A stretch of DNA of 64,000 bases from Acidobacteriota bacterium (lineage in GTDB: Bacteria > Acidobacteriota > Vicinamibacteria > Vicinamibacterales > JAKQTR01): assembly GCA_026393675.1 (NCBI GenBank), contig JAPKZQ010000045.1, positions 248,001 to 312,000 on the forward strand. Reading direction: 5' to 3'. Shown piece by piece: positions 17,726-35,499 of the stretch (position 1 is its first letter; every line of letters begins with the position of its first letter). The notes beneath the pieces were generated by a model. It searched no databases and was not told the DNA's origin. It worked only from the letters and a program-made list of their open reading frames with translations. The translations under genes were made by a program, and so were the position numbers.

Positions 17726-18496
17726 ATGCCACAGAAACGACCGACTATACGCACCGCACGCCAGGCCGACGGCGGCTCGCCGGCCCGATTCACCTCGCAG
17801 ACGCTCGCGTTTCTGCGCGCCCTCGCCCGCAACAACCGGCGCGAATGGTTTCAGGAGCGGAAGGACCGCTACGAGGAGGTCGTGCGGGCGCCGATGGCTG
17901 CGCTGGTAGAGCGACTGGCCGTCGACTTCCGCGACTTCGCGCCCGATCTGATCGCGACGCCGCGCGCGTCCATGTACCGGATCTACCGCGACACCAGGTT
18001 CAGCGCGGACAAGACGCCGCTCAAGACGCATATCGCCGCGGTGTTTCCCCACCGGCTGCTGCCCAAGCACGAGTGTGCGGGCCTGTACCTGGAGGTCGCG
18101 CCGCAGCATGTGTGGTACGGCGGTGGAATGTACATGCCGTCGACTTCGCAACTGCACCTGGTGCGCGAACACATCGCGGCCAACCACCGGCGCTTGCGCA
18201 CCATCGTCGAATCCCCGGCTTTCCGTCGGGTCTTCGGTGAGATCACGGGCGACCAGCTGAAGCGCGTGCCGCTCGGCTTTCCGAAAGATCATCCAGCGGC
18301 GGAGTTTCTGAAGTTCCGGCAGTTTCTGGCCGGATGTGAGAAGCCGGCCGCATTCGCCACGTCTCCCGGGTTCTACCGGTCGATTCTGACAGCGTTTCGG
18401 ACACTCTCGCCCCTCATCGCGTTTCTCAACGCGCCGCTCATCGCCGATCGCGGGCGGGGCTCTGATCCCTCCACATGGCTGTCGAGCGAGAGGTAG
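17726..18496 (+). CDS. DUF2461 / TIGR02453 family protein
   Basis: The 256-residue protein matches the DUF2461 family at full length: FLRALARNNRREWFQERKD near the start, RIYRDTRFSADKTPLKTHI in the middle, GLYLEVAPQHVWYGGGMY, and LKRVPLGFPKDHP. The function of the family is unknown; it is common and soluble. The ATG at 17726 has CGGAG nine bases upstream. The next gene begins 6 bases after the stop (or overlaps it, if an upstream ATG is used). Confidence 0.9.
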   Translation: MPQKRPTIRTARQADGGSPARFTSQTLAFLRALARNNRREWFQERKDRYEEVVRAPMAALVERLAVDFRDFAPDLIATPRASMYRIYRDTRFSADKTPLKTHIAAVFPHRLLPKHECAGLYLEVAPQHVWYGGGMYMPSTSQLHLVREHIAANHRRLRTIVESPAFRRVFGEITGDQLKRVPLGFPKDHPAAEFLKFRQFLAGCEKPAAFATSPGFYRSILTAFRTLSPLIAFLNAPLIADRGRGSDPSTWLSSER

Positions 18497-18501
18497 CGCG
18501 T

Positions 18502-19173
18502 ATGGTCGCCGGGATGGCCGGGCGACTGGCGACGGGGCTCGTCGGCCTCGTGCTGGTCGCTGCTGCCGCGCAGGCCCAGATCAGATTTAGCGACGAAACC
18601 GACCGCGGCGCGTTCCGATCCTGGTTCACGTTTCTGGCCGACACGCAGTTCTACCGCCACACCACCGACGTCGCCGACTGCGCGGGTCTGGTCCGCTACG
18701 CCGTTCGCGAGGCGATGCGCGTGCACACGCCTGAGTGGCACCGGCTCGCCGGCCTCCCCCTTTCTCCGCCCTTCGCGGATGTGCGCTCGCGACCGCAGCC
18801 TCGCCCGGACGGGTGGCCGCTATTCCGCGTCGACGACCACCGCTACGCGGAGTTCGCGGATGCGCGGACCATCATTACGCTGAACAGCCGCAGTGTCGGG
18901 CGCGACACCGGGGCCTTGCGCCCCGCCGATCTCCTCTATTTCAGGCAGGAGAACCAGCGCGCCCAGGACCACTTGATGGTGTACGTCGGCCCCTCGTTTT
19001 TTGAGCGGGACGGACAGGACTGGATCGTCTACCATACAGGTCCGACCGACGGGACCCCGGGCGAAGTACGGAAGACCCGGCTGACCGACTTATTGCGCCA
19101 TCCCGCCGCGCGTTGGCGACCGATCCTGCAGAACCCTTCGTTTGTTGGCATCTATCGACTGGCCTGGCTATGA
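18502..19173 (+). CDS. DUF1175 family secreted protein (YfaT-like)
   Basis: The 223-residue protein has an N-terminal signal peptide (MVAGMAGRLATGLVGLVLVA, ending AAAAQAQ). The DUF1175 core includes FRSWFTFLADTQFY, DVADCAGLVRYAVREAMR with a cysteine in an NlpC/P60-like position, and LRPADLLYFRQ and QDHLMVYVG with a histidine. The arrangement of Cys and His suggests a papain-like fold, which is inference. I prefer the ATG at 18502 because GAGAGG precedes it; an in-frame ATG at 18475 lacks a Shine-Dalgarno. In E. coli yfaT lies beside the macroglobulin-like yfaS, as here. Confidence 0.85.
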   Translation: MVAGMAGRLATGLVGLVLVAAAAQAQIRFSDETDRGAFRSWFTFLADTQFYRHTTDVADCAGLVRYAVREAMRVHTPEWHRLAGLPLSPPFADVRSRPQPRPDGWPLFRVDDHRYAEFADARTIITLNSRSVGRDTGALRPADLLYFRQENQRAQDHLMVYVGPSFFERDGQDWIVYHTGPTDGTPGEVRKTRLTDLLRHPAARWRPILQNPSFVGIYRLAWL

Positions 19174-22100
19174 AACGACTACACGTGTTGTTCCTCCTGG
19201 CGCTCGTCGGGTTCGCGCCAGCAAGGCTCGCCGCACAGGCACTGGACCAGAATGCGGGGCCGGCCTTCAACGTGTGGAGCAGCCAGATCTATCTGACGAA
19301 AGATCAGTCGGCGTTCTCCCTGACCTACCAGAACGTCGACCATCTGGATTTCCGGGTATATCGGGTCGTTGATCCGCTTGCCTTCTTCGCCGGCTTGCGC
19401 GATCCCCACCAGTTGGGCAGCGAGAAGCCGGTAGTGCCCCAGGAACGGACGTGGCTCGAGCGCATCGCGCTCTGGAAGGCCTCGCGCCGTGCCGACGTGC
19501 GGATGTTCCTGCGCGCCCAGGTGAGCCACGCCTACCGACTCAAGCAGCGCGAGGCGCAGGACAAGGAGAAGGTCGTGCAGCGCCAGACGCTGCAGTACAA
19601 CACGTTCGCGCAGGTGCCGTTGCTGAATGCGTCCCGCCTGGTGACGTCATGGCGCGAACTGCTGCCGCTCGCTCGTGATCCGGAGACACGGCGGATCCCG
19701 CTCGACGTGCACGATCCCGGCGTCTATCTCGTGGAAGCGGTCAGCGCCCCGCTCAGGGCCTACACGATCGTGATGGTCTCGGATATCGGGCTCGTCACGA
19801 AGACGGCGCCCGGGCAGATTCTCGTGTACGCCGCGCACCGTATCACCGGTGAACCACAGAAGGATTGCGACGTCCAGACGATCGTCGATCGGAAGGTCAG
19901 CAACGCCGGCAGGACCAATCAAGACGGCCTGGTGATGGCGGCGGTCGACGCGGTCCGGCCCGAGTCGGTCGTCACCGTCGCGCGGTGCGGATCGCAGGTG
20001 ACGGCCACCGACCCCGGCGGCTGGGCGATGCGCGAGCCAGCGCGTGAACTCACCGGATACATTTACACCGACAAGCCCATCTACCGGCCCGGCCACACGA
20101 CCCGGATCAAGGCCGTGCTGCGGTGGCGCGCCAACGGACAGTTGGTGCCGCTTGACGCGAAACAGGCGGAGGTCTCGATTACCGATGAGAGCGACAAGGT
20201 CGTGTACCGCGACACCCGCCCCATCGATGCGTTTGGCACCCTGAACACGTCGTTCCCCGTCCCGGCGAAGGGGGCACTGGGCTTCTACACGATCACGGTC
20301 ACATCCGGTGATGAAAAGGCGACCGGACATTTCGAGGTGCAGGAGTACCGGAAACCCGAGTTCGAGGTGACCGTCGTCAGCCCGGATCGCTTTGTGGTGC
20401 AGGGTCGCCAGGCCTCGGCCACCATCACGGCCCGGTACTATTTTGGCCAGCCGGTCGCCAATGGCATCGTGACGTACGTCGTCCACAAGCAGCCGTACTA
20501 TTCGCCGCTACGCTGGGGTGACGAGAGCGACGAGGAAGGCGGCGGGTGGTGGGGCGGCGAGGAGGCCAGCGAACAGTCGGCGCGGCTCGATGAAAAGGGC
20601 ACGGTGACGGTGTCGATTCCGCTCGCCGTCAACGACAAGGGCCGCGACTACTCCGTCCGCATCGAGGCGCGCGTCACCGATGCGAGCAGCCGCGAGGTGA
20701 GCGGCCACACGTTCGTGCACGCGACGTTCGGAAAGTTCTTCATCACGGCCCAGCCCGATCGATTCGTGCAGCGACCCGGAACGCGGGCGCAAGTCACGAT
20801 GAAGGTGCTCGACTATCTAGGCGCCCCGCAGTCAGGAACCACCCTGCGCGTGGCCCTGGAACGGCTCGTCTACGAAAAGGGGCGGTGGGACAATCCGACC
20901 GTCACCTCGATCGCGGACGGTACAGTGCAGTCCGACCAGGACGGACGGGCCGAATGGGCGGCCACCCTGCCAGCCGAACCCGGCACGTATCGATTCCGCG
21001 TCTCAAGCGACAGCGAGGGCAGAGCCGTGCAGGACACGGCGAGTGTGTGGGTGTCCGGCGCGCGATCGGACCTGGTCGATGAGTCCGACACCAATCTCGA
21101 ACTGGTGGCCGACAAGAAGTCCTACCAACCTGGAGACACCGCACGATTGATCATTCGAGGGGGCGAGGTGACGGCCCCCGTCCTGGTCACCAAGGAAGGC
21201 CAGCAGATCTCCGACTATCGCGTAGCCCGCGTCGGCAAGGACAGCACCATCGAGGTCCCGGTCGTCGAGGGCGACCTCGGCGACACATACGTGAATGTCG
21301 TGTTCGTCAGCAAGGATCGGCTGTACCGGGCCGAAAAGCGACTGAAAGTGCCCGCCACGTCACGACAACTGCAAGTGGCGGTCGCTGCCGAGCAGAACGT
21401 GTCGAAGCCCAGGCAACCCGGCCGGTTCACGCTCACCGTCACCGACGCCGTCGGGCAGCCCGTGAAGGCGCAATTGAGCGTTGGCGTCATCGACGAAGCC
21501 GTGTATGGCGTCAAACCTGATGACACGCCGGATCCGCTGCGGTTCTTCTACCGGCTGAACTACAGCCGGGTCAACACGGAGTTCTCTCGCGACTATTCGT
21601 TTACCGGCTACGCCGGGGCGCAGCAGTTGCTGCTCACCCAGCGGCAGCGGCGCCGCCCGTTGACCCTGGCCGACTTCAAGGGCGAAAAGCCCCGGCCCCA
21701 GGTGCGCAAGGACTTCCCCGACGCGATCTTCTGGACGGCCGATCTCGTCACCGATGCACAGGGCAAGGCCAACGTCGAGGTGCCCTACCCCGACGCACTC
21801 ACCACGTGGCGGCTGACGGCGCGCGCCGTGACGGCCGACACGAAGGTCGGTGCGGGACTCGCGCGGACGACTACCACCAAGGACCTGATCCTGCGCGTCG
21901 TCACGCCGCGTTTCCTGACCGAAGGCGACACGCTCGACCTGCCGGTTATCGTGCACAACTTCACAACCGGCGATCAGACCGTCAGCCTCACGGGCAAGGT
22001 CACCGGACTCGCCACCGGCGAGGCGGCTGGCTCCGCCGTTGATCTGTCGCAACCGCGCACGTTGCAGGTCGCGCAAAACGGTGAGGCCCGCATCGACTGG

Positions 22101-23915
22101 CGGATGAAAGCCTCGATCGTGGGAACGGCCACGGTGACCGGGTCGGCGACGACGCCATCCGATTCGGACGCGGTCGAACTGCCGTTCCCCGTGCTGCCCT
22201 TCGGGCTCAAGCGCGAATCCGGCGCCGCCGGTTCCATCGTCGGCGCGGGTGAACAGACCGCCGACCTGACCATCCCCGACACGGCCAATCCCGCGGCCCG
22301 CACCGTGCGGGTCCAGATCGCGCCTTCGCTGGCAGGCCCGCTGCTTGGCGCGTTGGAGTACCTCACGTCGTATCCATACGGATGCACGGAGCAGACACTC
22401 TCGAGCTTCGTGCCCAATCTGATCGCGCGGCGCGCGCTGGCGGATCTTAAGCTCCCGGTGACCGAGAGTCTCAAGTCGCTCGACAGGCAAGTCACCGAAG
22501 GACTCGCCCGCATTGGCGACTACCAGCACGATGATGGCGGATGGGGATGGTGGAAGACCGACGAGAACCACCCGTTCATGACGGCGTACGCTGTCTACGG
22601 ACTTCTCGAAGCGAAGGCCGCCGGCTACAAAGTCGACCGGTGGACTATTCAGAGGGGCCTGGGTGCCCTGCGGCGATTGTATGCCGAGTACCCGCGCGCG
22701 ATCCCGGAATTGAAGGTCTACAGCACATACGTGCTTCTGCTGGGCGGGGCGCAGGGAATCGCCGTTGAGAGCGACGACGCGGAGGGAAAGGGCTGGACCC
22801 AGAAAACGGCGCTCGATGAACTGTGGGCCGCGCGAAGCCGCATGACGGCCTACGGCCAGAGCCTCCTTCTGCTCGCACTCGATCTCGTGAAAGACGTGCG
22901 CGGCAACGACCTGGCCAAAGAACTGACGGCCTCGGCGCAGCGCAAAGGCGACCTCGCCTGGTGGCCCACGGACCATGATCCGCTGCTCGAGGACTTCACC
23001 GACACCAGCGTCGAGGCGACCGCGTTCGCCGTGCGTGCGCTCGCCCGGCGCGATCCGAAGAACCCCCTGCTCGAACCGGCCGTGCGGTGGCTGCTGCTCA
23101 ACCGGACGTATGGCATCTACTGGGCCAGCACCAAGCAAACCGCCATGGTGCTCTACGGTTTGCTCGACTTCATGAGGGCGCGAGGCGAGACCGCGAGCGA
23201 TGGCGAGGTGGACGTGCTGGTCAACGGCACATCCATCGGCACACGACGCTTCACTGCCGCGGCAATCACGTCTCCCGATCCAATTGAGCTGACCGCTCCC
23301 GCACGCTCGGGCGCCAATGCCATTCGCATCGTCAAGCGGGGCGGCGGCGCCGTCTACTGGGCGGCGCAGGCGACCTACTACGACACCACAGCGGCGCAGG
23401 AGCGCACGGGCTCGCGCAAGCTCGCGCTGCAACGCTGCTACTTCACCCTGTCTCCAGTGACCGTCAAAGGCCGCATCGTCTACCGGGAAACGCCGTTTGC
23501 CGGCACGGCCCGACCCGGGGACCTGCTGCTCGTGCGACTGACCACGGCAGGTTCGAAGGACTGGCGCTACCTCATGCTGGAGGATCCGATACCGGCTGGC
23601 ACCGAACCGATCCAGCAGGACCAGTTGTACACGCTGGAGCAGAAGCGATCCTTCTGGTGGGGCAGCCGGCGGGAGTTCCGCGACAGTCGTGTCGTGTTCT
23701 TTCTGGAAACGTTCAGCGAGGGCCGTTACGAGTTTAGCTATCTGCTGAAAGTCACGACGCCGGGCATCTTCCGCGCGACGCCGGCGCGCATCTCCGCGAT
23801 GTATGTACCGGATGCCATGGCCTCGAGCGATACGATTACTGTGACGGTGGAATCGGCAGCGACGGGGATAGCGACGACGCCGGCCGCCGCACCGGCCAAG
23901 GGAGGTCAGCAGTGA
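19170..23915 (+). CDS. Bacterial alpha-2-macroglobulin (YfaS-like), thioester-containing
   Basis: The 1581-residue secreted protein has a signal peptide at residues 1-23. Serial MG-type beta domains occupy the first two thirds (for example GYIYTDKPIYRPGHTTRIK and VQEYRKPEFEVTV). A macroglobulin signature follows (ARAVTADTKVGAGLARTTTT), then the thioester domain with YPYGCTEQ, where C1072 and Q1075 form the internal thioester, and a C-terminal receptor-like domain. Such proteins trap proteases in the periplasm or on the surface. The ATG lies inside the stop of the DUF1175 gene and has no Shine-Dalgarno, so it depends on coupling. There is no lipobox, unlike E. coli YfhM. Confidence 0.93.
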   Translation: MKRLHVLFLLALVGFAPARLAAQALDQNAGPAFNVWSSQIYLTKDQSAFSLTYQNVDHLDFRVYRVVDPLAFFAGLRDPHQLGSEKPVVPQERTWLERIALWKASRRADVRMFLRAQVSHAYRLKQREAQDKEKVVQRQTLQYNTFAQVPLLNASRLVTSWRELLPLARDPETRRIPLDVHDPGVYLVEAVSAPLRAYTIVMVSDIGLVTKTAPGQILVYAAHRITGEPQKDCDVQTIVDRKVSNAGRTNQDGLVMAAVDAVRPESVVTVARCGSQVTATDPGGWAMREPARELTGYIYTDKPIYRPGHTTRIKAVLRWRANGQLVPLDAKQAEVSITDESDKVVYRDTRPIDAFGTLNTSFPVPAKGALGFYTITVTSGDEKATGHFEVQEYRKPEFEVTVVSPDRFVVQGRQASATITARYYFGQPVANGIVTYVVHKQPYYSPLRWGDESDEEGGGWWGGEEASEQSARLDEKGTVTVSIPLAVNDKGRDYSVRIEARVTDASSREVSGHTFVHATFGKFFITAQPDRFVQRPGTRAQVTMKVLDYLGAPQSGTTLRVALERLVYEKGRWDNPTVTSIADGTVQSDQDGRAEWAATLPAEPGTYRFRVSSDSEGRAVQDTASVWVSGARSDLVDESDTNLELVADKKSYQPGDTARLIIRGGEVTAPVLVTKEGQQISDYRVARVGKDSTIEVPVVEGDLGDTYVNVVFVSKDRLYRAEKRLKVPATSRQLQVAVAAEQNVSKPRQPGRFTLTVTDAVGQPVKAQLSVGVIDEAVYGVKPDDTPDPLRFFYRLNYSRVNTEFSRDYSFTGYAGAQQLLLTQRQRRRPLTLADFKGEKPRPQVRKDFPDAIFWTADLVTDAQGKANVEVPYPDALTTWRLTARAVTADTKVGAGLARTTTTKDLILRVVTPRFLTEGDTLDLPVIVHNFTTGDQTVSLTGKVTGLATGEAAGSAVDLSQPRTLQVAQNGEARIDWRMKASIVGTATVTGSATTPSDSDAVELPFPVLPFGLKRESGAAGSIVGAGEQTADLTIPDTANPAARTVRVQIAPSLAGPLLGALEYLTSYPYGCTEQTLSSFVPNLIARRALADLKLPVTESLKSLDRQVTEGLARIGDYQHDDGGWGWWKTDENHPFMTAYAVYGLLEAKAAGYKVDRWTIQRGLGALRRLYAEYPRAIPELKVYSTYVLLLGGAQGIAVESDDAEGKGWTQKTALDELWAARSRMTAYGQSLLLLALDLVKDVRGNDLAKELTASAQRKGDLAWWPTDHDPLLEDFTDTSVEATAFAVRALARRDPKNPLLEPAVRWLLLNRTYGIYWASTKQTAMVLYGLLDFMRARGETASDGEVDVLVNGTSIGTRRFTAAAITSPDPIELTAPARSGANAIRIVKRGGGAVYWAAQATYYDTTAAQERTGSRKLALQRCYFTLSPVTVKGRIVYRETPFAGTARPGDLLLVRLTTAGSKDWRYLMLEDPIPAGTEPIQQDQLYTLEQKRSFWWGSRREFRDSRVVFFLETFSEGRYEFSYLLKVTTPGIFRATPARISAMYVPDAMASSDTITVTVESAATGIATTPAAAPAKGGQQ

Positions 23916-24643
23916 TCAAGCGAACCGCCGCGATCCTCGCCTGGCTGGTCGTCGGACATGCCGTGCTTGGCGGGTTGTACTGGGCGCTGCTCCTGGTGCC
24001 CGAATCGAATGTGCTCATGCTGAGCACTTCCCTGCTGCTCGTTCTGGGCATGGTGTGGTGGCTCGGGCTTGTCGAGGGCGTTGGCCTGCGGGCCTGGCAG
24101 GCCGACGGTGGCCTGCGGGCAAGCCTGACGCCAGCCGCGAGACGCGCCTGGCTGGTCGTGTTCCCGCTGGTCGTCTTCGCCCTCGTTTGGTGGATCACGG
24201 GGCTCGCCTCGGGATGGCTCGACCGGCATTGGAGCGAGATCGATGCCTGGATCCTGTTGAAGACCGGATGGACAAACACCGCAGTCCTGATGTCGGGGTG
24301 GAAGCACCTGATTGCGTTTGTCCGCTATGGGTTCGGCGCGTCGCTTGCCTTGGCGCTCTTTGTCGGTCTGCTCCGAACGGGCCTGGGCGGGCTTGCGTCG
24401 GTTTCATGGGCGCGCCGGGCGTTCGCATGGCGCCAGCTCGTCATCATCGCCGCCGCCCTCGTGGTCGGCGTGCTCCTGCCGTCACATCTCGCGTACTGGC
24501 GCTGGCAGCCCAAGAGCGTCTCCGCCACGTGGTTTGAACCGGCATTTGCTGTGACCAAACTCTCGCTGATGTTCCTGGTCGCGAACCTGGCGTGGGCGGC
24601 TGTGCTTCGAGCGATCAGTCGGGAAGCTCAGAAGCGACAGTAG
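23912..24643 (+). CDS. Membrane protein of the macroglobulin operon, unknown function
   Basis: The 243-residue protein starts at a GTG overlapping the macroglobulin stop (GTGA), so it belongs to the same operon. I count about six transmembrane helices, including AAILAWLVVGHAVLGGLYWA and SLLLVLGMVWWLGLVEGVGL, and few polar loops. No family is recognised. Bacterial macroglobulins often pair with penicillin-binding protein 1C; that partner is absent here, and this protein takes its place. Confidence 0.7.
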   Translation: MIKRTAAILAWLVVGHAVLGGLYWALLLVPESNVLMLSTSLLLVLGMVWWLGLVEGVGLRAWQADGGLRASLTPAARRAWLVVFPLVVFALVWWITGLASGWLDRHWSEIDAWILLKTGWTNTAVLMSGWKHLIAFVRYGFGASLALALFVGLLRTGLGGLASVSWARRAFAWRQLVIIAAALVVGVLLPSHLAYWRWQPKSVSATWFEPAFAVTKLSLMFLVANLAWAAVLRAISREAQKRQ

Positions 24644-25170: not shown

Positions 25171-26790
25171 TCAGAACACCCTTGTGTCGACGCGGCCGAG
25201 CAGGTCGGACCCGAAGTCGTAGACGACGAACCGGATGTTCTGCGTGCCGCGGATGTTCGGGAACTGAATCACGTACGGAAACCCGCTCTTCAGGAAGCGC
25301 GCGTATTCCTCCTCGCTCAACTGCAACGGCAGCGCCTGCACATACGTTCCCATCGGATTGGCCGCGCTATCGAAGCAGAAGACCGCAACGTTGAGCAGGC
25401 CGACGCGCAATCCGCCGAGTGTCGTGACCTTGATCTTCGACAGGTCGATCTTGCCCTCGACGGCGAGGGTGGCGCCCCCGCCCTGCGATGCCGACGCCTT
25501 CACCTTGATGTCGTTCACCTCGCGCCGGAAATTCCCAGCCGCGCCGAGCCGACCGTTGGCGACGAACGCGCGTCGGTCGAACGTGCCGATCTCCGATGCA
25601 CGGAAGTACCCGTGCCGGAACAGCACCGTGACGTCGGGGCGGTTCACCTTCACGTCAATGCTCCGGTAGCCGCCGTCCCACGCCGTGTTCGAGGCCCGGT
25701 AGCCGAGCACGTAGCCTGTCCTGGTCGTCTCGTCCAGTCGGTCGAGCACCGCCTGTCCATTCTCGGTGATCGCCGCCAGCCCGCCCGTCAGATCTGAGAT
25801 CGTCCTGAGGCTCCGGAACGACATCGCCTGCTGCGCCGTGGCGTTCAGCTCCCTGCCCGACTCCGCCGCGAGCATGCCGCCGGCCTGGAGCGCGTGGATC
25901 GACACCCGCGCGTCGTTCGCGATGGACGCGAGCGCCCGATCGTTCTCGTCGCTCGGCCAGATCAATCCCTTTTCGGTGACGAAGAGAACGTCCTTCTCGC
26001 CGTCGAAGCGCCGCAGGTACTCCATCAACGCCATCAAATTTTCATGGTCCTTGAGCGTGGTGGCGCTCGACGCCATGAAGTCGTCGAGGGACATCCCGCC
26101 GAACGCCTCGCGTTCGATCGCCTCAGCCGACGTCGGGGTCGCCGGCTTCGCGCCCGGCCCGAGGACCATCGCGTCGATCTTGGTCTGCAGTTTCCTGGGA
26201 AGCACCCGGTTGCCGTAGAGCGGCGCCATCCCGGTGGCGCCCAACTCCAAGCCCAGCGCGAAGTCCACGTCCTCGTGCGACTTCTTGAACCGTTCGAGCG
26301 CCTCCGCGATCTTCTGATGATCGGTCGTGAACGAGAGCGCACGGTCGTGGGCAAACAGCGCCACCTGGTCCTGTGGCAGCAGCCGGGTCTTCACGAAACG
26401 CAGCAGGCCGCTGATGTATCCCGACGGCACTTCGAGCCGGCCCAGGCCCAGCGCGATCACAAACATGCGCCGATTCTGCGGGCCCAACGTCATGCCGCTA
26501 CGGAGGGTCAATGCGGCGTCGGGCGACGATGTGTCGGGCGCGAGCGCCTGCAAGGTGAAGTGCCGGACCTGCTGTGGAACTCCGTCTTCGGTCACGGTGA
26601 AGTCTGCCTGTTTCAGGTCGGTGACCGGCTTGCCGGACCGGTCGACCACGTGAACGTTGACGGGCACGAGGTCAAGCGGGGCTTGCGCGGGCGACGCGGA
26701 CGGCGCCTGCGGCATGGCGTGCGTGACCGGGAAGCCGACGAGCACCAACACGAAGAGGAACGCGCAGACTGGATACAGGCGTCGCGACAT
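25171..26790 (-). CDS. VWA domain protein of the VWFA-related acidobacterial type
   Basis: The 539-residue secreted protein starts at an ATG at 26790 with AGAGAGG upstream. The signal peptide ends near residue 25. A PVNVHVVDRSGKPVTDLKQA segment with ADFTVTEDGVPQ forms the N-terminal strand motif shared by acidobacterial VWFA proteins (TIGR03436). The VWA-like core follows, with RRMFVIALGLGRLEV, FDGEKDVLFVTEKGL and ARVSIHALQAGGML. The metal-site DxSxS motif is not clear. The C-terminal 150 residues form another beta domain. It is the last gene of a minus-strand operon with the PBP-SpoIID fusion (83-base gap). A role in extracellular adhesion or envelope assembly is inferred only. Confidence 0.83.
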   Translation of the reverse strand: MSRRLYPVCAFLFVLVLVGFPVTHAMPQAPSASPAQAPLDLVPVNVHVVDRSGKPVTDLKQADFTVTEDGVPQQVRHFTLQALAPDTSSPDAALTLRSGMTLGPQNRRMFVIALGLGRLEVPSGYISGLLRFVKTRLLPQDQVALFAHDRALSFTTDHQKIAEALERFKKSHEDVDFALGLELGATGMAPLYGNRVLPRKLQTKIDAMVLGPGAKPATPTSAEAIEREAFGGMSLDDFMASSATTLKDHENLMALMEYLRRFDGEKDVLFVTEKGLIWPSDENDRALASIANDARVSIHALQAGGMLAAESGRELNATAQQAMSFRSLRTISDLTGGLAAITENGQAVLDRLDETTRTGYVLGYRASNTAWDGGYRSIDVKVNRPDVTVLFRHGYFRASEIGTFDRRAFVANGRLGAAGNFRREVNDIKVKASASQGGGATLAVEGKIDLSKIKVTTLGGLRVGLLNVAVFCFDSAANPMGTYVQALPLQLSEEEYARFLKSGFPYVIQFPNIRGTQNIRFVVYDFGSDLLGRVDTRVF

Positions 26791-26873: not shown

Positions 26874-29228
26874 TCAGCGCAGATCCTGCCAGCGCGTGCC
26901 GGAGGCCAGCGCGCGGGCCACGCAACCGCCGGCCGCTTCGTACACACCGCGCCACGCCTCTGGTGAAGCGGCCGCACGGAAGTCGGCGTCGGCCGGACAA
27001 GCGACGCCGCGAGGCCCGGCTGCTGAGTTCGGGCCGCGGGTGGATCGTCCTACGGTGGTGCCCGCCGCACGTTCTCCGGCCTTGACGATGGCCAGTCCCT
27101 CCCGGACCCAGAGCGGGCGATCGCGCAGGAGGGGATCGATCAGGACGTGCACCAGTTCGTGCCGCAGCGTCAGTTCGAGGATCCCCCGCTTCCGCAGCAC
27201 ATCGAGCGGGAGCAGATCGATCCGCGACCCCTTCGTGCGCGCCGACGTCCACCAAGGCTGCCCCGTCGCCCGCGTGTACGCTTCGACCGTCGGGTGAAAC
27301 TGCAGGTCCAGCACCGACGGCAATGCCACGCCGAGGCTGGACGACATGACGCGAGCCAGTTGGCGCGTCAGCGACCGCACCTCATCGAGACGCTCGCGAT
27401 CGGCTTCGGGCAGCAGGACGCGAATGGCCGGATCGCTTCCAGACATCACCGCTCCGCCGGCCCCGCTGTCCGTGCCTGACAGGGCGGCCACCTGAAGACC
27501 TGGAAAGTAGGCCGCGAGGATCTCGACCCGACTTCGACCCTGCGCAGCGCGACTCGCCGCGCCGCGCACGCACAGGCCCACGCCATGGCCGAGGCCACGG
27601 CCCGAGAGCACAAACCCGACACCAGAACGCCGCACGTTGAACAGGGTGCTCTTGACGACCTGCCAGCCAAGCACACGACCGGCGGCCAACTGAAAGGTGT
27701 TGGCATCGATGTGATCGGGCGCCATCCCCTCCACGCGGAGCATCGCGGCGCGTCCGGACGGATGTCGCGATGCGACGCTGAAGCCGCGCACCGCCGAACC
27801 GCGCAAGCCGGCGGCTTCCAACACCCGGCGCAACTGCGGTTCCGCGACCTCGCTCGTCCATCCCGCTTCGTTCTGGCACGCCGGATCCGGTCGCGCAGGC
27901 AGATACGCGGGATCGTCGGCGCCTGCCCACACATGCGACGGCGCTTCCGTGTGACCGCCGCACCAGGCCGAATAGAAGACGCGAGCGACGTGATCCCCTT
28001 CGCGCAGCACGAGGCCCGCAGTCGACCGCGCGGCTCGCTCCGTCTCCGCTGTCGCAAGGCCAAGCACCTGGCAGTGCGTGAGATCGCAGAAGTCAAACCC
28101 CTCGGCGGCATGACGTCCCCGGTTGGCTGCCGCGAACGTCCGCACGGTGATCGTCAGCGCCTCGAGCGCCGCCATCGGAGCGCCCGCGGACATTTCGCCG
28201 GCCACCACGCGCGCGACGTAGGATTCGAGAGGCAGCCAGACAGGATCGTAGCCGCCTCCGCGCCGGGTGATGCCAATGCGAACCTCGCCCGAGCGCACGG
28301 AACGGCTTACGCTCCGTGCGGCCGCGCCAGTGCTGCCGAGATCAGGCGTTGATGGCGCCTGCGTCGCCCCCCCGCCATCCCTCGCTCGCGCGATGCCCCA
28401 CGTCCTCAGTACGTCGACGGCCACCGCAGCCGCATCGGCACCGGCGCCGCCTGGTACGACAACGACGATCGCGTAAGCAGGCTTCGAGTCGGGTGTCGTC
28501 GCGACGACCACTCCGAGGTAGCCCCCGCCAGCCATCGGCGCCGTGCCTGTCTTGGCCAGCGCCGGGACTCCCGCGCTGCCAAACGCGGATGCCGTTCCCA
28601 CCGTCGCCGCCATCCGTAGCCCCCCAATCACGGTCGCCCGCGTCCGGTCGGACATGCGGAATGATGAGGCTGGTCCTGTCACTCTGATGAAGCCGTCCAG
28701 CAGGCCCCGCGGCGTTGCGCAGACGCCAGCCAGGCCCAACGCGACGAGTGCCGTCGGAGCGCCGCCGCCACTCGGCCCAAGCCCCATGCGAACGAGCACA
28801 TCGTCGAGCGCCGCGCGCGGCAAGCGCTGAGCCACGGTGGCGAAGAACACGTTGCAGGAATAGCCCAGCGCCTCGGACGCACCCAGCGGCCGGTGCAGGT
28901 CGGGATGGACGCACGTGAGGGTGCGTCCATCGACCGTCACGGTGCGTCGGCACACAATGCGCGTCGCCTCATCGACGACGCCCTGCTCCATGGCGGCGAT
29001 AAGCGTGGCAATCTTGATGACCGACCCCGGCGCGGTCGCCGCGGCGAGCACGTCGGGGCGCGACTCGGCCACGACACGCTTCGATGAGAGGTCGATCAGA
29101 AGGTAGGCGGGACCGGTTGATGACGCGGGTTGGGCGGCGGCCAGGCCAGGCCAGGCGGCAAGGCATAGCAAGGCGCCCACGGCCGCCAATAACCTGGACC
29201 TCGACAGACGCACGCGTTCAGCAATCAC
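26874..29228 (-). CDS. Three-domain fusion: penicillin-binding transpeptidase, SpoIID, HExxH peptidase
   Basis: The 784-residue secreted protein has a signal peptide at 1-32. Residues 36-280 form a compact transpeptidase domain with all three motifs: S69-V-I-K72, S124-C-N126 and K226-T-G-T. Residues 310-590 match SpoIID/LytB with the catalytic glutamate E345 in VVAGEMS, the cysteine pair C381/C386 in FDFCDLTHC, and the glycine-histidine motif GRGLGHGVG. Residues 600-784 carry HELVH (690-694), a gluzincin-like zinc site. SpoIID is a lytic transglycosylase for peptide-stripped glycan. The chain could therefore crosslink peptides, cut glycan and clip protein. It lies 36 bases after the esterase gene. 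Confidence 0.85.
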   Translation of the reverse strand: MIAERVRLSRSRLLAAVGALLCLAAWPGLAAAQPASSTGPAYLLIDLSSKRVVAESRPDVLAAATAPGSVIKIATLIAAMEQGVVDEATRIVCRRTVTVDGRTLTCVHPDLHRPLGASEALGYSCNVFFATVAQRLPRAALDDVLVRMGLGPSGGGAPTALVALGLAGVCATPRGLLDGFIRVTGPASSFRMSDRTRATVIGGLRMAATVGTASAFGSAGVPALAKTGTAPMAGGGYLGVVVATTPDSKPAYAIVVVVPGGAGADAAAVAVDVLRTWGIARARDGGGATQAPSTPDLGSTGAAARSVSRSVRSGEVRIGITRRGGGYDPVWLPLESYVARVVAGEMSAGAPMAALEALTITVRTFAAANRGRHAAEGFDFCDLTHCQVLGLATAETERAARSTAGLVLREGDHVARVFYSAWCGGHTEAPSHVWAGADDPAYLPARPDPACQNEAGWTSEVAEPQLRRVLEAAGLRGSAVRGFSVASRHPSGRAAMLRVEGMAPDHIDANTFQLAAGRVLGWQVVKSTLFNVRRSGVGFVLSGRGLGHGVGLCVRGAASRAAQGRSRVEILAAYFPGLQVAALSGTDSGAGGAVMSGSDPAIRVLLPEADRERLDEVRSLTRQLARVMSSSLGVALPSVLDLQFHPTVEAYTRATGQPWWTSARTKGSRIDLLPLDVLRKRGILELTLRHELVHVLIDPLLRDRPLWVREGLAIVKAGERAAGTTVGRSTRGPNSAAGPRGVACPADADFRAAASPEAWRGVYEAAGGCVARALASGTRWQDLR

Positions 29229-29264: not shown

Positions 29265-29945
29265 TCACCGACCCGAGACGCCGAGAAACCGCGCCGATTC
29301 GGCCCAGATCAACTCCAGATTCGCGCCTAGCAGATGGTCATCATCGAGCATGCGCAAGGAGACGCCAAGCCGCCCAGCCGCGAATCGCTGCACCATCGCG
29401 GGGTCGACCACATCATCTCGCCGGCCGTGGAAGATGAGCGTCGGTGTCGAGATCTGTTCGGCGAAGGAATCGTGCTTCTGCGCGTCTTCGTACAAGGCAA
29501 AACGGATTGGTCTGATCTGGTTTAACGCGTAGTGCATCACGTCGTACCGGTCCGTCCGGCGCCACCGCTCGAGACCGGCGGCATCCAGCGGTCCGAATCC
29601 CGATCGCCCGAAATCGAGCGCTGGAGCGAGCAGCACCAGGCGATCGATCGGCGAGCGAACCGGCATGCCGGCATCGCGGGCCCGGGCCTGCCGGACCGCC
29701 ACCTGGTACGCCACGAAGCCGCCCAGACTTGATCCAACCAGCGCCAGCGGCCCGTGGGGCAGCAACGCCATCTCCTGCTCGACCTGCGCAATCATCCGCG
29801 TCGTGGTCAGCGTCGAGAAGTCGGGCTCGTTCAAATCCGGGCAGCGCACATCGATGCCGAGTGGACAGAGCCGTTCGGCGAACAACCGCGCCTTGGTCGA
29901 CTCGGGAGACGAGCCGAACCCGTGCAGGTAGATGAGGTGTCTCAC
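29265..29945 (-). CDS. YqiA/YcfP-like alpha/beta hydrolase (esterase)
   Basis: The 226-residue protein begins RHLIYLHGFGSSPESTKA, the characteristic start of YqiA-type esterases. The nucleophile is S73 in G-S-S-L-G-G, an acid residue lies in FHGRRDDVVDP, and the histidine lies in MLDDDHLL, so the triad is complete. YqiA-family enzymes hydrolyse short-chain esters and their natural substrate is unknown. It sits between the SET gene (27-base gap) and the PBP-SpoIID fusion in a minus-strand operon. Confidence 0.87.
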   Translation of the reverse strand: MRHLIYLHGFGSSPESTKARLFAERLCPLGIDVRCPDLNEPDFSTLTTTRMIAQVEQEMALLPHGPLALVGSSLGGFVAYQVAVRQARARDAGMPVRSPIDRLVLLAPALDFGRSGFGPLDAAGLERWRRTDRYDVMHYALNQIRPIRFALYEDAQKHDSFAEQISTPTLIFHGRRDDVVDPAMVQRFAAGRLGVSLRMLDDDHLLGANLELIWAESARFLGVSGR

Positions 29946-29972: not shown

Positions 29973-30386
29973 TCAGAGCTTCGTCGTGCAGCCGGGCCGG
30001 CACTGGCAGGCAATGCCCGCCTTTCCGCCGGTGTAATACCGATACGACAATTCCATGCCCGGTTGTACCGTCCGCGCCGCGCAGATCCAGATGGTGTCGC
30101 CGACGACGCGCGAGTAGCAGTTCGGTTTACAGCCGTGGTTGATGTAGCGAGCGATGCTGCCACCCACTTCGCCATCGCGCACCCACCGATGGTTGATGGC
30201 GAACAGCCAGATATGGCCGTGCGCCTGATGCGCGGCTTCCCGCGCGTGGCTCTCCCGCGTCGTGATCTTCTCTCCAGCGTAGTCGATGATGCGTGTGTTC
30301 TTGGGGATGGTCTCGATCGCGAAGACGCCCCAGCCGTGGAGGCGGGAACGACGGCGAACGATACGGGGATACGAGGGTGTCTTCAT
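29973..30386 (-). CDS. SET domain protein-lysine methyltransferase
   Basis: The 137-residue protein is a minimal SET domain. It has SRLHGWGVFAIETIPKNTRI (SAM-binding GWG), SIARYINHGCKPNCYSRV (the RxxNHxCxPN pseudoknot motif), LSYRYY with the catalytic tyrosine, and a post-SET CQCRPGC zinc motif. It transfers methyl groups from SAM to protein lysine. Bacterial single-domain SET proteins are patchy and often acquired from eukaryotes; targets are rarely known. It heads a minus-strand operon, and TATCTT ends seven bases before its ATG, suggesting a leaderless start. Confidence 0.9.
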   Translation of the reverse strand: MKTPSYPRIVRRRSRLHGWGVFAIETIPKNTRIIDYAGEKITTRESHAREAAHQAHGHIWLFAINHRWVRDGEVGGSIARYINHGCKPNCYSRVVGDTIWICAARTVQPGMELSYRYYTGGKAGIACQCRPGCTTKL

Positions 30387-30475
30387 CTGCTCTAAGATAC
30401 ACTGCGCAGGCCCGGGGAGGGCAACTGCCTCGTATCGATGGCAGCATGACGGCGAAGCGGAAAACGGAGCGCGAG
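30387..30475. promoter_or_regulatory. Divergent promoter region between the SET and haem-RidA operons
   Basis: An 89-base gap separates the two divergent starts. On the minus strand TATCTT (30399-30394) lies seven bases before the SET ATG. On the plus strand GGAG (30467-30470) serves the haem-RidA gene. Both operons begin here, so co-regulation is possible. Confidence 0.4.
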
Positions 30476-32059
30476 ATGTCACACTCAACACGTCGACGCA
30501 TCGTGCTGGGCTTCGTGGTCGTGGTGGTAGCCGCCCAGTTCATCAGGCCTGATCGCACCAACCCGGCTGTCGTTCCGGAGCAGGCGCTCGAAGCCGGTGG
30601 GCACGTGCCAGCTCAGGTGGTGGCGACGCTCAAGCGCGGGTGCTACGACTGCCACGCGCACACCACGATCTGGCCCTGGTACACCAATGTGACGCCGGTC
30701 TCGTGGATGATGGCCGACCACGTGAACGAAGGCCGCCAGAAGCTGAATTTCTCGACGTGGAATACCCTGCCGGCGAAACGCCGCGTCAAGGAACTCGAGA
30801 AAATTCAGCGTCTCGTCACCGACGGCGAGATGCCACTCGCCAGCTACCTGCTCATCCACCGCGACGCGAAGATGTCCGACGATGACAAGCAGATCGTGTC
30901 GAACTGGACGAGCGCAGAGCGAGCGCGCCTGATGCAGGAGGAGGCGATCGCCACGATGCCAGCCTTCGCGCCGACCTCGACCTACGGAGGCTTCGTCTAC
31001 GTGTCTGGCATCCTGCCCGGCGCGGCAATCGCGCCGCCATCGGTGGCCGAGGACATCCGCAGGCAGACCACGCGCGTGCTGGACGAACTGAAGGCACGCC
31101 TGGCAAAGGCCGGCACGAGTCTCGATCGCGTGGTGACGCTCTCGGTCTATCTGAAACGCGCCGAGGACTTCGCGGCGATGAACCAGGTGTGGGCGAAGTA
31201 CTGGCCAAAGGACCCGCCGTCCCGCACCACGGTCATCGCGGGACTGCCGTCGCCGGGCGCCCTGATTCAGGTAACCGCCATCGCGGCCACGCCCGACACG
31301 CCGCGCCAGACGATTCATCCGAAAGCCTGGCTCAAATCGCCCAGCCCATACAGCTACGCCGTCAAGAGCGGCGACACGTTGTTTCTGGCCGGCCTGGTTG
31401 CGCGGCGCGGCGTCGACAACACCACCGTCAACGGCGACATCACGGTGCAGACCCGGACCGTACTCGAAAACGCGAAAGCGATTCTGGCGGAGGCGGGATT
31501 CGGGTTCAACGACGTCGTGAGCGCACGGGTCTTTCTGACAGACGTCGCGAACTTTGCCAGGATGAATGAGACCTACCGGTCGGCCTGGCCGAAGGACCCG
31601 CCGGCGCGGGCCACGGTCATCACCGGGCTCACGAATTCGGGCTACCTGGTTGAGATCACATTCGTCGCGGTCAAGGGTGGCGCGCGCGTGGCCTATACGA
31701 CGCCGATCGCCGACGGCACGGCTGGCATCCCGAGCCCGAACCTGAGCGGCGCCATCAACATCGGTCCACGCCTGTTCGCGTCGGGCATGCTCGGGATCGT
31801 CCCGGGCAAGACGCCTGACGCCGCTCTGCAGGCCCGGGAGATCCTGGCGCGGCTGGGCCGGACCATCGCGCTCGGCGGCGCGCAGTGGTCGAATGTGATT
31901 GAATCGGTGGTCTACGTGACGGACCTCGGCAAGGCCCCAGCCGTGCTGAACGCCTTCCGCGCGCAAGTCGGTCCGGCGCTGCCAGTGGGAACCCTCGTGG
32001 TCTCGGGCTTGGTGAGCCCCGGGGGTCTGGCCGAGATCATGCTGACAACGGGAAAGTGA
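30476..32059 (+). CDS. Fusion of a haem-binding domain with three RidA-like domains
   Basis: The 527-residue protein has an N-terminal membrane anchor (residues 9-22) and a haem-binding domain (DUF/Haem_bd type) at about 35-150, with C56-Y-D-C59-H60, WPWYTNVTPVSWMM and DGEMPL. Three YjgF/RidA domains follow at about 155-285, 290-410 and 415-527. Domains 1 and 2 keep the ligand-binding arginine after the double proline (PPSRTTV, PPARATV). Domain 3 has ALPVGTLV and lacks it. RidA proteins deaminate reactive enamines/imines. Soluble RidA is normally a single-domain trimer, so three copies in one chain may form an internal trimer on the outer face of the membrane. Confidence 0.85.
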   Translation: MSHSTRRRIVLGFVVVVVAAQFIRPDRTNPAVVPEQALEAGGHVPAQVVATLKRGCYDCHAHTTIWPWYTNVTPVSWMMADHVNEGRQKLNFSTWNTLPAKRRVKELEKIQRLVTDGEMPLASYLLIHRDAKMSDDDKQIVSNWTSAERARLMQEEAIATMPAFAPTSTYGGFVYVSGILPGAAIAPPSVAEDIRRQTTRVLDELKARLAKAGTSLDRVVTLSVYLKRAEDFAAMNQVWAKYWPKDPPSRTTVIAGLPSPGALIQVTAIAATPDTPRQTIHPKAWLKSPSPYSYAVKSGDTLFLAGLVARRGVDNTTVNGDITVQTRTVLENAKAILAEAGFGFNDVVSARVFLTDVANFARMNETYRSAWPKDPPARATVITGLTNSGYLVEITFVAVKGGARVAYTTPIADGTAGIPSPNLSGAINIGPRLFASGMLGIVPGKTPDAALQAREILARLGRTIALGGAQWSNVIESVVYVTDLGKAPAVLNAFRAQVGPALPVGTLVVSGLVSPGGLAEIMLTTGK

Positions 32060-34704: not shown

Positions 34705-35499
34705 GTGACGTTCCGACCTAAGAACCTGACCGCCGAGACGCACCCCTGCGGAGTGGTCGCGTTTCTGGTGCTCGCGGCCACGCTGGTCGCAGCCTGCGCG
34801 CGGAGCCCGTCTGCTCCGAGTACCGGTGAAAGCCCGTTCGAGCAATTGGCCGAAAAGCTCGCCACGGCCCACTTCAGGATGCTCGCCGATCGGAGCGACG
34901 CGGCAACCCTACGTGCGGTCGCCGATGCGCTGGAGTCGGCCTATCCCCGGGTCACAACCGACTTGCACACGGGCGACCTGCCGGTCGTGGCAGCCTGGAT
35001 CTGGGTGGACGCCGCGTCCTTCTACGACGCGATGCGTGGGAACATCGGGCAGACCTATCCCGGCAGCCGCGGCTACGTCTTTGGCGTGCGCAACCTCGGC
35101 GTGCTGGCCGACGCCACGGTGGCGCGCCACGCCACCCACGAATTCGTCCACGTGGTTTCGTTGGCGGTGAACGCGACGATCGGCAACAACCCGCGCTGGC
35201 TGTGGGAGACAGTGGCGCTTTATGAGAACGGTGAGTTCGTCAACCCCGCGAGCCTTGATTACATGCTTGCCGGCCGCTACCCGACGCTTGCGGCGCTCGA
35301 TGCCGACTTCAATACGAGCCGGCAGATCTACGAGGTCGGCTACCTGCTGGGAGAGTTCATCGTCTCGGAGTGGGGCCTGCCGGGCTTGGTGGGCCTGATT
35401 CGTGAGAATGGCAACCTGGCCCGCGCGCTCGGCGTGACGACCGAGGCGTTCGAGGCTCGGTGGTACGCGTTTCTGCGGTCCAAGTACGGGCTGCCGTAG
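34705..35499 (+). CDS. HExxH-containing lipoprotein (peptidase MA-like)
   Basis: The 264-residue protein starts at a GTG with TGAGGGAG upstream. The signal sequence ends in a lipobox-like VAAC around residue 31, so it is likely a lipoprotein. HEFVHVVSLAV carries a zinc-binding HExxH, and WLWETVALYENGEFV downstream supplies the third glutamate expected in gluzincins such as peptidase MA-like proteins. Its domain resembles the C-terminal domain of the PBP-SpoIID fusion at 26874-29228. The substrate is unknown. It stands alone. Confidence 0.78.
   Translation: MTFRPKNLTAETHPCGVVAFLVLAATLVAACARSPSAPSTGESPFEQLAEKLATAHFRMLADRSDAATLRAVADALESAYPRVTTDLHTGDLPVVAAWIWVDAASFYDAMRGNIGQTYPGSRGYVFGVRNLGVLADATVARHATHEFVHVVSLAVNATIGNNPRWLWETVALYENGEFVNPASLDYMLAGRYPTLAALDADFNTSRQIYEVGYLLGEFIVSEWGLPGLVGLIRENGNLARALGVTTEAFEARWYAFLRSKYGLP

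What the first reader, a model, noticed from the sequence alone, without database searches (positions are those of the whole stretch)
26874..29228. Transpeptidase, SpoIID glycan-cleaving and HExxH domains fused in one exported protein
All three penicillin-binding motifs (S69xxK72, S124CN126, K226TGT), the SpoIID catalytic glutamate E345 with its Cys pair, and a HELVH zinc motif are intact. SpoIID is known mainly from endospore engulfment, whereas this organism appears to be non-sporulating and diderm. Combining peptide crosslinking with cleavage of denuded glycan and a metalloprotease suggests a self-contained wall-remodelling enzyme.
Basis: partly seen in the sequence, partly recalled or inferred. 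Interest (0 to 1): 0.75.

Follow-up and report, generated by a model that had tools for sequence, protein, structure and literature searches.

The report
Wall-enzyme fusion of a macroglobulin cluster
One exported bacterial protein joins a penicillin-binding domain, a wall-sugar-cutting domain and a metalloprotease domain, and it occurs only in genomes that also carry a particular bacterial alpha-2-macroglobulin gene cluster, which suggests these protease-trap clusters come with their own cell-wall repair enzyme.

Summary
The 784-aa exported protein (26874-29228, -) has a compact PBP-type transpeptidase (TP) domain, a SpoIID domain and an M1-like gluzincin domain, all with intact catalytic residues. 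These residues are conserved across two phyla.

It is not a stand-alone enzyme. It belongs to a cluster of DUF1175, alpha-2-macroglobulin (A2M) and a membrane protein; in the window these lie at 18475-24643, convergent. In 60 genomes of the order, DUF1175 is present in exactly the 22 genomes with the A2M-linked gene and in none of the other 38. At least three lineages lost the TP domain and DUF1175 together. Myxococcota encode TP, SpoIID and HExxH as separate neighbouring genes after DUF1175-A2M. Another acidobacterial family has the domains in a different order. E. coli yfaT-yfaS-yfaQ has the same layout, and YfaQ is a remote, partly degraded relative.

Most likely this is the peptidoglycan-editing part of Mag/Yfa-type A2M systems, the lineage of YfaQ and, by gene order, MagE. 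The Pseudomonas mag operon protects against wall-cutting T6SS effectors by an unknown mechanism. Gene linkage and residues are shown; enzymatic activity and wall repair are inferred.

The parts
26874..29228 (-). TP-SpoIID-gluzincin fusion protein, 784 aa, GTG start
29133..29228 (-). predicted Sec signal peptide (about residues 1-32, hydrophobic core then LAAAQ; no lipobox)
   Evidence: sequence; hydropathy windows 12-14; helix 2-24 in model
28389..29117 (-). compact PBP-type transpeptidase domain (residues 38-280): S69xxK72, S124CN126, K226TGT
   Evidence: PF00905 1.3e-18; Foldseek hits to PBP2/PBP3; motif conservation
27471..28295 (-). SpoIID domain (residues 312-586): E345, H373/C381/H385/C386 zinc-type site, GHGVGLC
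   Evidence: PF08486 and TIGR02669 over cut-off; Foldseek best hits 5i1t and 4rwr
26877..27440 (-). M1-like gluzincin domain (residues 597-784): H690ELVH694, E710
18475..19173 (+). DUF1175 protein (YfaT/MagC type, NlpC/P60-like fold)
   Evidence: PF06672 4.7e-50
19170..23915 (+). alpha-2-macroglobulin with thioester motif YGCTEQ; ATG at 19170 overlaps the DUF1175 stop by 4 nt
23912..24643 (+). polytopic membrane protein of the A2M cluster (243 aa), overlaps the A2M stop by 4 nt
   Evidence: conserved next to A2M in several Acidobacteriota families
29265..29945 (-). alpha/beta hydrolase (UPF0227-like) 36 nt upstream of the fusion gene, same strand; homologous neighbour at several orthologous loci, functional link uncertain

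Best explanation
The protein is the peptidoglycan-acting component of a periplasmic alpha-2-macroglobulin system of the Mag/Yfa kind, and a catalytically intact relative of E. coli YfaQ. It is exported to the periplasm. Inferred mechanism: the SpoIID domain trims peptide-free glycan, for example where the wall has been damaged or opened by an amidase. The serine TP domain acts on D-Ala-D-Ala stems or crossbridges (transpeptidation, or DD-carboxy/endopeptidation) to close or tidy the site. The gluzincin domain cuts a peptide or protein substrate. The partner A2M traps intruding proteases, and DUF1175 docks the system on peptidoglycan. Together they would act as envelope damage control. Shown here: domains, residues, and linkage to DUF1175 and A2M. 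Inferred: every enzymatic step and the damage-control role.
For: Domains, residues and folds. Linkage: in 60 genomes of the order, DUF1175 occurs in exactly the 22 genomes that carry the A2M-linked gene (TP verified in 18; in 4 the gene is cut by a contig end) and in 0 of the other 38 (Fisher 7e-17, not corrected for kinship). The short A2M follows the same 22. Three genomes (G009, G024, G038) keep both although the genes are not neighbours. On the gene tree TP and DUF1175 states agree in 46 of 46 rows, with 3 independent joint changes on well-supported branches. 0 of 14 TP-less loci have A2M nearby. Same cassette in other forms: TP|SpoIID|HExxH as separate genes after DUF1175-A2M in Myxococcota; TP|SpoIID-HExxH in Terriglobia and Bryobacteraceae MAGs; fused and co-directional behind DUF1175-A2M in other acidobacterial families; TP then HExxH-SpoIID in family f36. 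E. coli and Citrobacter have DUF1175-A2M-YfaQ; YfaQ matches the SpoIID profile (32-40 bits) and the TP profile (13.6-16.3 bits, controls at most 1.0), with S-L-W-K, SCG, KTW and HEYLH at corresponding places. Literature: the mag operon protects P. aeruginosa against wall-cutting T6SS effectors (PMC12663445); MagC is NlpC/P60-like and binds peptidoglycan (Zouhir 2021, as cited in PMC10318531).
Against: No activity has been measured. In the window the A2M genes are on the other strand, so co-regulation is not implied. G298 has the TP form and a partial DUF1175 but no A2M beside it. Only 3 independent joint changes exist, too few for significance. The HExxH part of YfaQ is matched by motif and position only. 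PMC5764988 reports MagE as cytoplasmic and possibly a chaperone, which fits badly with a periplasmic wall enzyme; MagE = YfaQ is itself inferred from gene order. Thermotoga has DUF1175 and A2M but no PF08486 match.
Confidence: 0.6

Rival explanations
1. Ordinary septal or growth-related wall remodelling enzyme: SpoIID removes denuded glycan at division and TP trims or crosslinks; the A2M cluster is an incidental neighbour kept by chromosome conservation.
For: SpoIID of Waddlia is septal (PMC6635528). TP-less SpoIID-HExxH forms live on without A2M or DUF1175, so the SpoIID part has a use of its own. The genome has one Amidase_3 protein that could supply denuded glycan.
Against: Presence follows DUF1175/A2M genome by genome even when the genes are not neighbours (G009, G024, G038). 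The cassette stays beside DUF1175-A2M in Myxococcota and Gammaproteobacteria with different strand arrangements and gene structures. Most genomes of the order lack it, so it is not a core division enzyme.
Confidence: 0.2
2. Processing or maturation factor of the A2M: the HExxH and TP domains act on A2M or on its membrane complex rather than on the wall, as suggested for MagE.
For: Delta-magE changes MagD forms and amount (PMC5764988). The gluzincin residues are conserved with the cassette. E. coli YfaQ keeps HEYLH although its SpoIID part is shortened and its SxN/KTG motifs are changed.
Against: Intact SpoIID glutamate, zinc-type site and TP triad in two phyla point to wall substrates. TP-less forms without A2M keep SpoIID.
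Confidence: 0.15
3. Beta-lactam sensing or sequestering protein: a soluble compact TP domain that serves as a decoy target.
For: Compact, periplasmic, non-anchored TP fold with an intact SxxK/SxN/KTG set.
Against: No sensor or beta-lactamase gene was recognised next to it among the neighbours scanned; fusion with glycan-cutting and metalloprotease domains is not explained.
Confidence: 0.05

Closest known systems
E. coli YfaQ (tandem DUF2300) of the yfaA-yfaT-yfaS-yfaQ-yfaP cluster; by gene order MagE of the P. aeruginosa mag operon
   Same: TP-like, SpoIID and HExxH parts in the same order in one exported-looking chain; encoded next to A2M and DUF1175.
   Different: YfaQ has SCG and KTW instead of SCN and KTG, a shortened SpoIID part, and matches PF10062; the window protein has intact motifs and no PF10062 match.
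SpoIID/LytB lytic transglycosylases (B. subtilis, C. difficile, Waddlia SpoIID)
   Same: Domain family, catalytic glutamate, zinc-type site, fold.
   Different: Fused to TP and gluzincin domains; not the sporulation equivalog TIGR02870 (76.6 bits against a cut-off of 234.75); linked to A2M.
Class B penicillin-binding proteins (PBP2, PBP3, SpoVD)
   Same: TP fold and the three motifs.
   Different: Compact (about 240 aa), no pedestal domain, no membrane anchor beyond a signal peptide.
Type I bacterial A2M (yfhM type) paired with PBP1c
   Same: A thioester A2M paired with a transpeptidase-bearing protein (PMC5764988).
   Different: PBP1c is described as a peptidoglycan synthase; here the partner has SpoIID and gluzincin domains and no glycosyltransferase match, and DUF1175 is present.

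Membership tests
Penicillin-binding transpeptidase fold (PF00905) | Curated profile over cut-off and TP fold | tested here: met
   PF00905 67.7 bits, cut-off 22.1; Foldseek to PBP2/PBP3 chains
Penicillin-binding transpeptidase fold (PF00905) | SxxK, SxN and KTG motifs | tested here: met
   S69VIK, S124CN, K226TGT; conserved in TP-bearing relatives, two with KTAT
Penicillin-binding transpeptidase fold (PF00905) | Beta-lactam acylation, crosslinking activity | not testable with these tools
   needs Bocillin labelling and muropeptide analysis
Class B PBP proper | N-terminal pedestal domain and membrane anchor before the TP domain | tested here: not met
   TP starts at about residue 38, directly after the signal peptide
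SpoIID/LytB | PF08486 and TIGR02669 over cut-off | tested here: met
SpoIID/LytB | Catalytic glutamate | tested here: met
   E345, 90% or more in A1 and present in all orthologues that cover it
SpoIID/LytB | Cleavage of denuded glycan | not testable with these tools
   needs amidase-treated sacculi
Sporulation SpoIID (TIGR02870 equivalog) | Equivalog cut-off 234.75 bits | tested here: not met
   76.6 bits
DUF2300 (PF10062, YfaQ) | PF10062 match | tested here: not met
   no match in the window's genome, so not filed as DUF2300
YfaQ-type protein of an A2M cluster (works like / counterpart) | Homology of the SpoIID and TP parts to YfaQ | tested here: met
   SpoIID 32-40 bits; TP 13.6-16.3 bits, controls at most 1.0; single-sequence E-values only
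YfaQ-type protein of an A2M cluster (works like / counterpart) | Homology of the HExxH part to YfaQ | tested here: inconclusive
   HEYLH at the right place, no profile score above controls
Mag/Yfa A2M cluster | A2M adjacent to DUF1175 | tested here: met
   18475-19173 and 19170-23915
Type II A2M (MagD/YfaS) | A2M lacks the CXEQ thioester | tested here: not met
   window A2M has YGCTEQ
Mag/Yfa A2M cluster | DUF2138 (MagB/YfaA) and DUF2135 (MagF/YfaP) genes | not tested
   not searched in this genome; none seen among the neighbours scanned
Gluzincin (M1-like) metallopeptidase | HExxH plus downstream glutamate, gluzincin fold | tested here: met
   H690, E691, H694, E710 invariant; Z 11.6 to aminopeptidase N
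Gluzincin (M1-like) metallopeptidase | Curated Pfam family match | tested here: inconclusive
   Peptidase_MA_2 best 0.0041 and SprT-like 0.0084 in some relatives, none for the window domain

The most novel reading that the evidence does not exclude
DUF1175-type bacterial A2M systems are envelope damage-control machines with a dedicated peptidoglycan-editing enzyme (TP + SpoIID + gluzincin), of which YfaQ/MagE is the degraded proteobacterial version; A2M protease trapping is only one arm of a wall-repair module that counters peptidoglycan-cutting attack.
Probability: 0.35. Interest if true: 0.85.

Novelty: new variant of a known kind. Interest (0 to 1): 0.68.

Why it matters
What bacterial A2M clusters do, and why they carry genes of unknown function, is open. 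The mag operon was recently shown to protect P. aeruginosa against peptidoglycan-cutting T6SS effectors with no mechanism known (PMC12663445). An intact three-domain wall enzyme that appears and disappears with DUF1175 and A2M gives a concrete, testable mechanism, and it re-labels YfaQ, annotated only as a tandem-DUF2300 protein in E. coli K-12 and the likely MagE counterpart, as a probable wall-enzyme relative. No held paper was found that links SpoIID to A2M systems or this fusion to Acidobacteriota.

Tried and rejected
(1) Chance or mis-framed ORF: rejected, orthologues and codon-position pattern. (2) Self-contained sporulation-like enzyme: rejected as the main reading; TIGR02870 below cut-off. 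(3) DUF2300 membership by Pfam: not met. (4) Direct BLAST/hhalign of YfaQ against the window protein gave only the SpoIID stretch; TP homology needed profiles with Myxococcota and f36 sequences. (5) A profile of the C-terminal domain found no PDB sequence relative, and Foldseek alone gave no match under E 0.001; the fold assignment rests on VIA-align. (6) Plasmid search with the window protein gave only SpoIID-domain matches. (9) An apparent 1540-aa ORF on the minus strand of L050 was the antisense of the A2M gene.

Full report
OBSERVATION. The ORF at 26874-29228 on the minus strand gives 784 residues. PF00905 (1.3e-18) and PF08486 (1.6e-15) are over their cut-offs, as is TIGR02669. The chain starts with a signal-peptide-like stretch and has no other clear membrane segment (hydrophobic windows at 12-14, 60 and 251-254). 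A full-length AlphaFold model with 32 orthologues has mean pLDDT 87 and pTM 0.46, so domains are confident and their arrangement is not. Foldseek puts SpoIID of C. difficile and B. anthracis first and PBP2/PBP3 transpeptidase domains next. The last 188 residues modelled alone (pLDDT 90.5, pTM 0.86) align best with M1 aminopeptidase catalytic domains (Z 11.6). H690, E691, H694 and E710 are invariant in 16 relatives, so this is a gluzincin-type zinc site.

CONSERVATION. Orthologues occur through the same order. Two layouts exist: TP-SpoIID-HExxH, and SpoIID-HExxH without TP. SxxK and SCN are conserved in every TP-bearing sequence from Acidobacteriota and Myxococcota, and KTG in nearly all (two have KTAT; in two rows, L079 and L082, the alignment left the column empty). 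The SpoIID glutamate is kept throughout. HExxH is degenerate only in some TP-less proteins (L020, L022, L023, L027; L014 has HQxxH).

NEIGHBOURHOOD. In the window, DUF1175 (18475-19173), A2M (19170-23915) and a polytopic membrane protein (23912-24643) form a plus-strand unit with 4-nt overlaps. It converges on the fusion gene, with a minus-strand gene (25171-26790) between. The same convergent arrangement is seen in 13 further loci of Vicinamibacterales-type MAGs. In other acidobacterial families (L125-L129, L131) the order is DUF1175, A2M, membrane protein, then the fused TP-SpoIID-HExxH gene on the same strand; in L130 the DUF1175 gene lies just outside the fetched stretch. In Terriglobia and Bryobacteraceae MAGs TP is a separate gene before SpoIID-HExxH. 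In Myxococcota, six of nine loci with a strong DUF1175 match carry A2M and then TP and SpoIID, five of them with HExxH, mostly as separate genes on one strand. In acidobacterial family f36 the module order is TP, then HExxH-SpoIID, once as a single chain (L164). E. coli K-12 and a Citrobacter plasmid have DUF1175, A2M, YfaQ.

CO-OCCURRENCE. In 60 genomes of the order, DUF1175 is over cut-off in 22. These are exactly the genomes with the A2M-linked orthologue: TP is verified in 18, and in G004, G006, G012 and G055 the gene is cut by a contig end. The remaining 38, among them all with only TP-less copies (G005, G008, G015, G020, G028, G030, G039, G046, G048, G054), have none. Fisher's test gives 7e-17 without correction for kinship. 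The shorter type of A2M follows the same 22 genomes; a longer A2M of 1900-2100 aa occurs independently. G009, G024 and G038 keep both gene sets although they are not neighbours. Fourteen TP-less loci have no A2M nearby, though flanks are short for a few (L136-L138). On a tree of 50 SpoIID-HExxH sequences, TP and DUF1175 states agree in 46 of 46 scored rows; each needs four changes, and three independent pairs lie on well-supported branches. Three pairs cannot reach significance. In a phylum-wide sample, 40 of 297 genomes have DUF1175. The 20 genomes in that sample where I identified the TP form are all among them. Of the other 20, seven were inspected: all have a TP gene right behind A2M, and six also have SpoIID and HExxH; L167 has TP only.

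RELATION TO YfaQ. YfaQ matches DUF2300 and PF08486. By eye its N-terminal part reads PLGSLWKL, then a Cys-rich segment, then RSCGLYFA, then VKTWSW, against APGSVIKI, the C-x-C segment, YSCNVFFA and AKTGTA in the window protein; near its end it has THEYLH. Profiles support this: SpoIID 32-40 bits, TP 13.6-16.3 bits against at most 1.0 for 50 shuffles, reversed sequences and other yfa proteins. The HExxH part of YfaQ is supported by motif and position only. YfaQ is therefore a remote and, at the TP motifs, degraded relative. The window protein does not match PF10062, so it is called a counterpart and not a DUF2300 member. MagE = YfaQ rests on gene order.

MECHANISM. From the families: SpoIID cuts glycan whose peptides have been removed and depends on amidase action (PMC6221140; PMC6635528). 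A serine TP domain with an intact triad can crosslink or trim stems. A gluzincin cuts peptides. The mag operon of P. aeruginosa is needed against the wall-cutting effectors VgrG3 and Tae1 (PMC12663445). MagC, a DUF1175 protein, binds peptidoglycan (Zouhir 2021, as cited in PMC10318531). The simplest joint reading is an envelope damage-control system in which this protein does the wall chemistry and A2M deals with intruding proteases. The wall chemistry, the division of labour and the damage-control role are all inferred. PMC5764988 reports MagE as cytoplasmic and possibly a chaperone; that conflicts with this reading and should be retested.

A further point: the window's A2M has the thioester motif YGCTEQ, typical of type I A2M, yet its partners are those of the type II operon. 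The two published types are therefore not cleanly separated in these phyla.

SCORE. The domains are known kinds; the intact fused form and its strict tie to DUF1175/A2M are, as far as I could search, not described. It turns an open question about A2M operons into simple experiments. Interest 0.68; new variant of a known kind.

Noticed in passing
L134-L146, L152: TP-less SpoIID-HExxH proteins without A2M or DUF1175; in some relatives of this group the HExxH residues are degenerate while the SpoIID glutamate stays.
   Followed up: partly
L163-L168 (G084, G139, G275, G245, G314, G297): In family f36 the modules are ordered TP, HExxH, SpoIID instead of TP, SpoIID, HExxH; in L164 all three are one chain, an apparently separate fusion. 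L167 has only TP behind A2M.
   Followed up: partly
L149 (G298): TP-SpoIID-HExxH, a partial DUF1175 and the membrane protein are present but A2M is absent between them; could be a real deletion or an assembly fault.
   Followed up: partly
L151 and L152 (G056): One genome has two copies: a TP-bearing one beside A2M-DUF1175 and a TP-less one without A2M.
   Followed up: yes
window 19170-23915: A2M carries the thioester motif YGCTEQ although its partners (DUF1175, YfaQ-like protein) are those of the thioester-free type II operon.
   Followed up: partly
window 23912-24643: Conserved polytopic membrane protein directly behind A2M in several Acidobacteriota families; no Pfam family over cut-off.
   Followed up: partly
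window 34705-35499: A second, separate exported-looking HExxH protein (HEFVH) with a weak Peptidase_MA_2 match.
   Followed up: no
window 25171-26790: Gene between the fusion gene and the A2M unit without a Pfam family over cut-off; looks like a VWFA-related acidobacterial protein by eye.
   Followed up: no
window 30293-32059: Haem-binding domain fused to three L-PSP (RidA-like) repeats in one ORF.
   Followed up: no
G000 versus relatives: Most relatives also have an ordinary second SpoIID/LytB protein; the window's genome has only the one PF08486 match.
   Followed up: no
L053 9799-14403: E. coli K-12 yfaS (A2M) is annotated as a pseudogene while yfaQ and yfaT beside it are intact.
   Followed up: no
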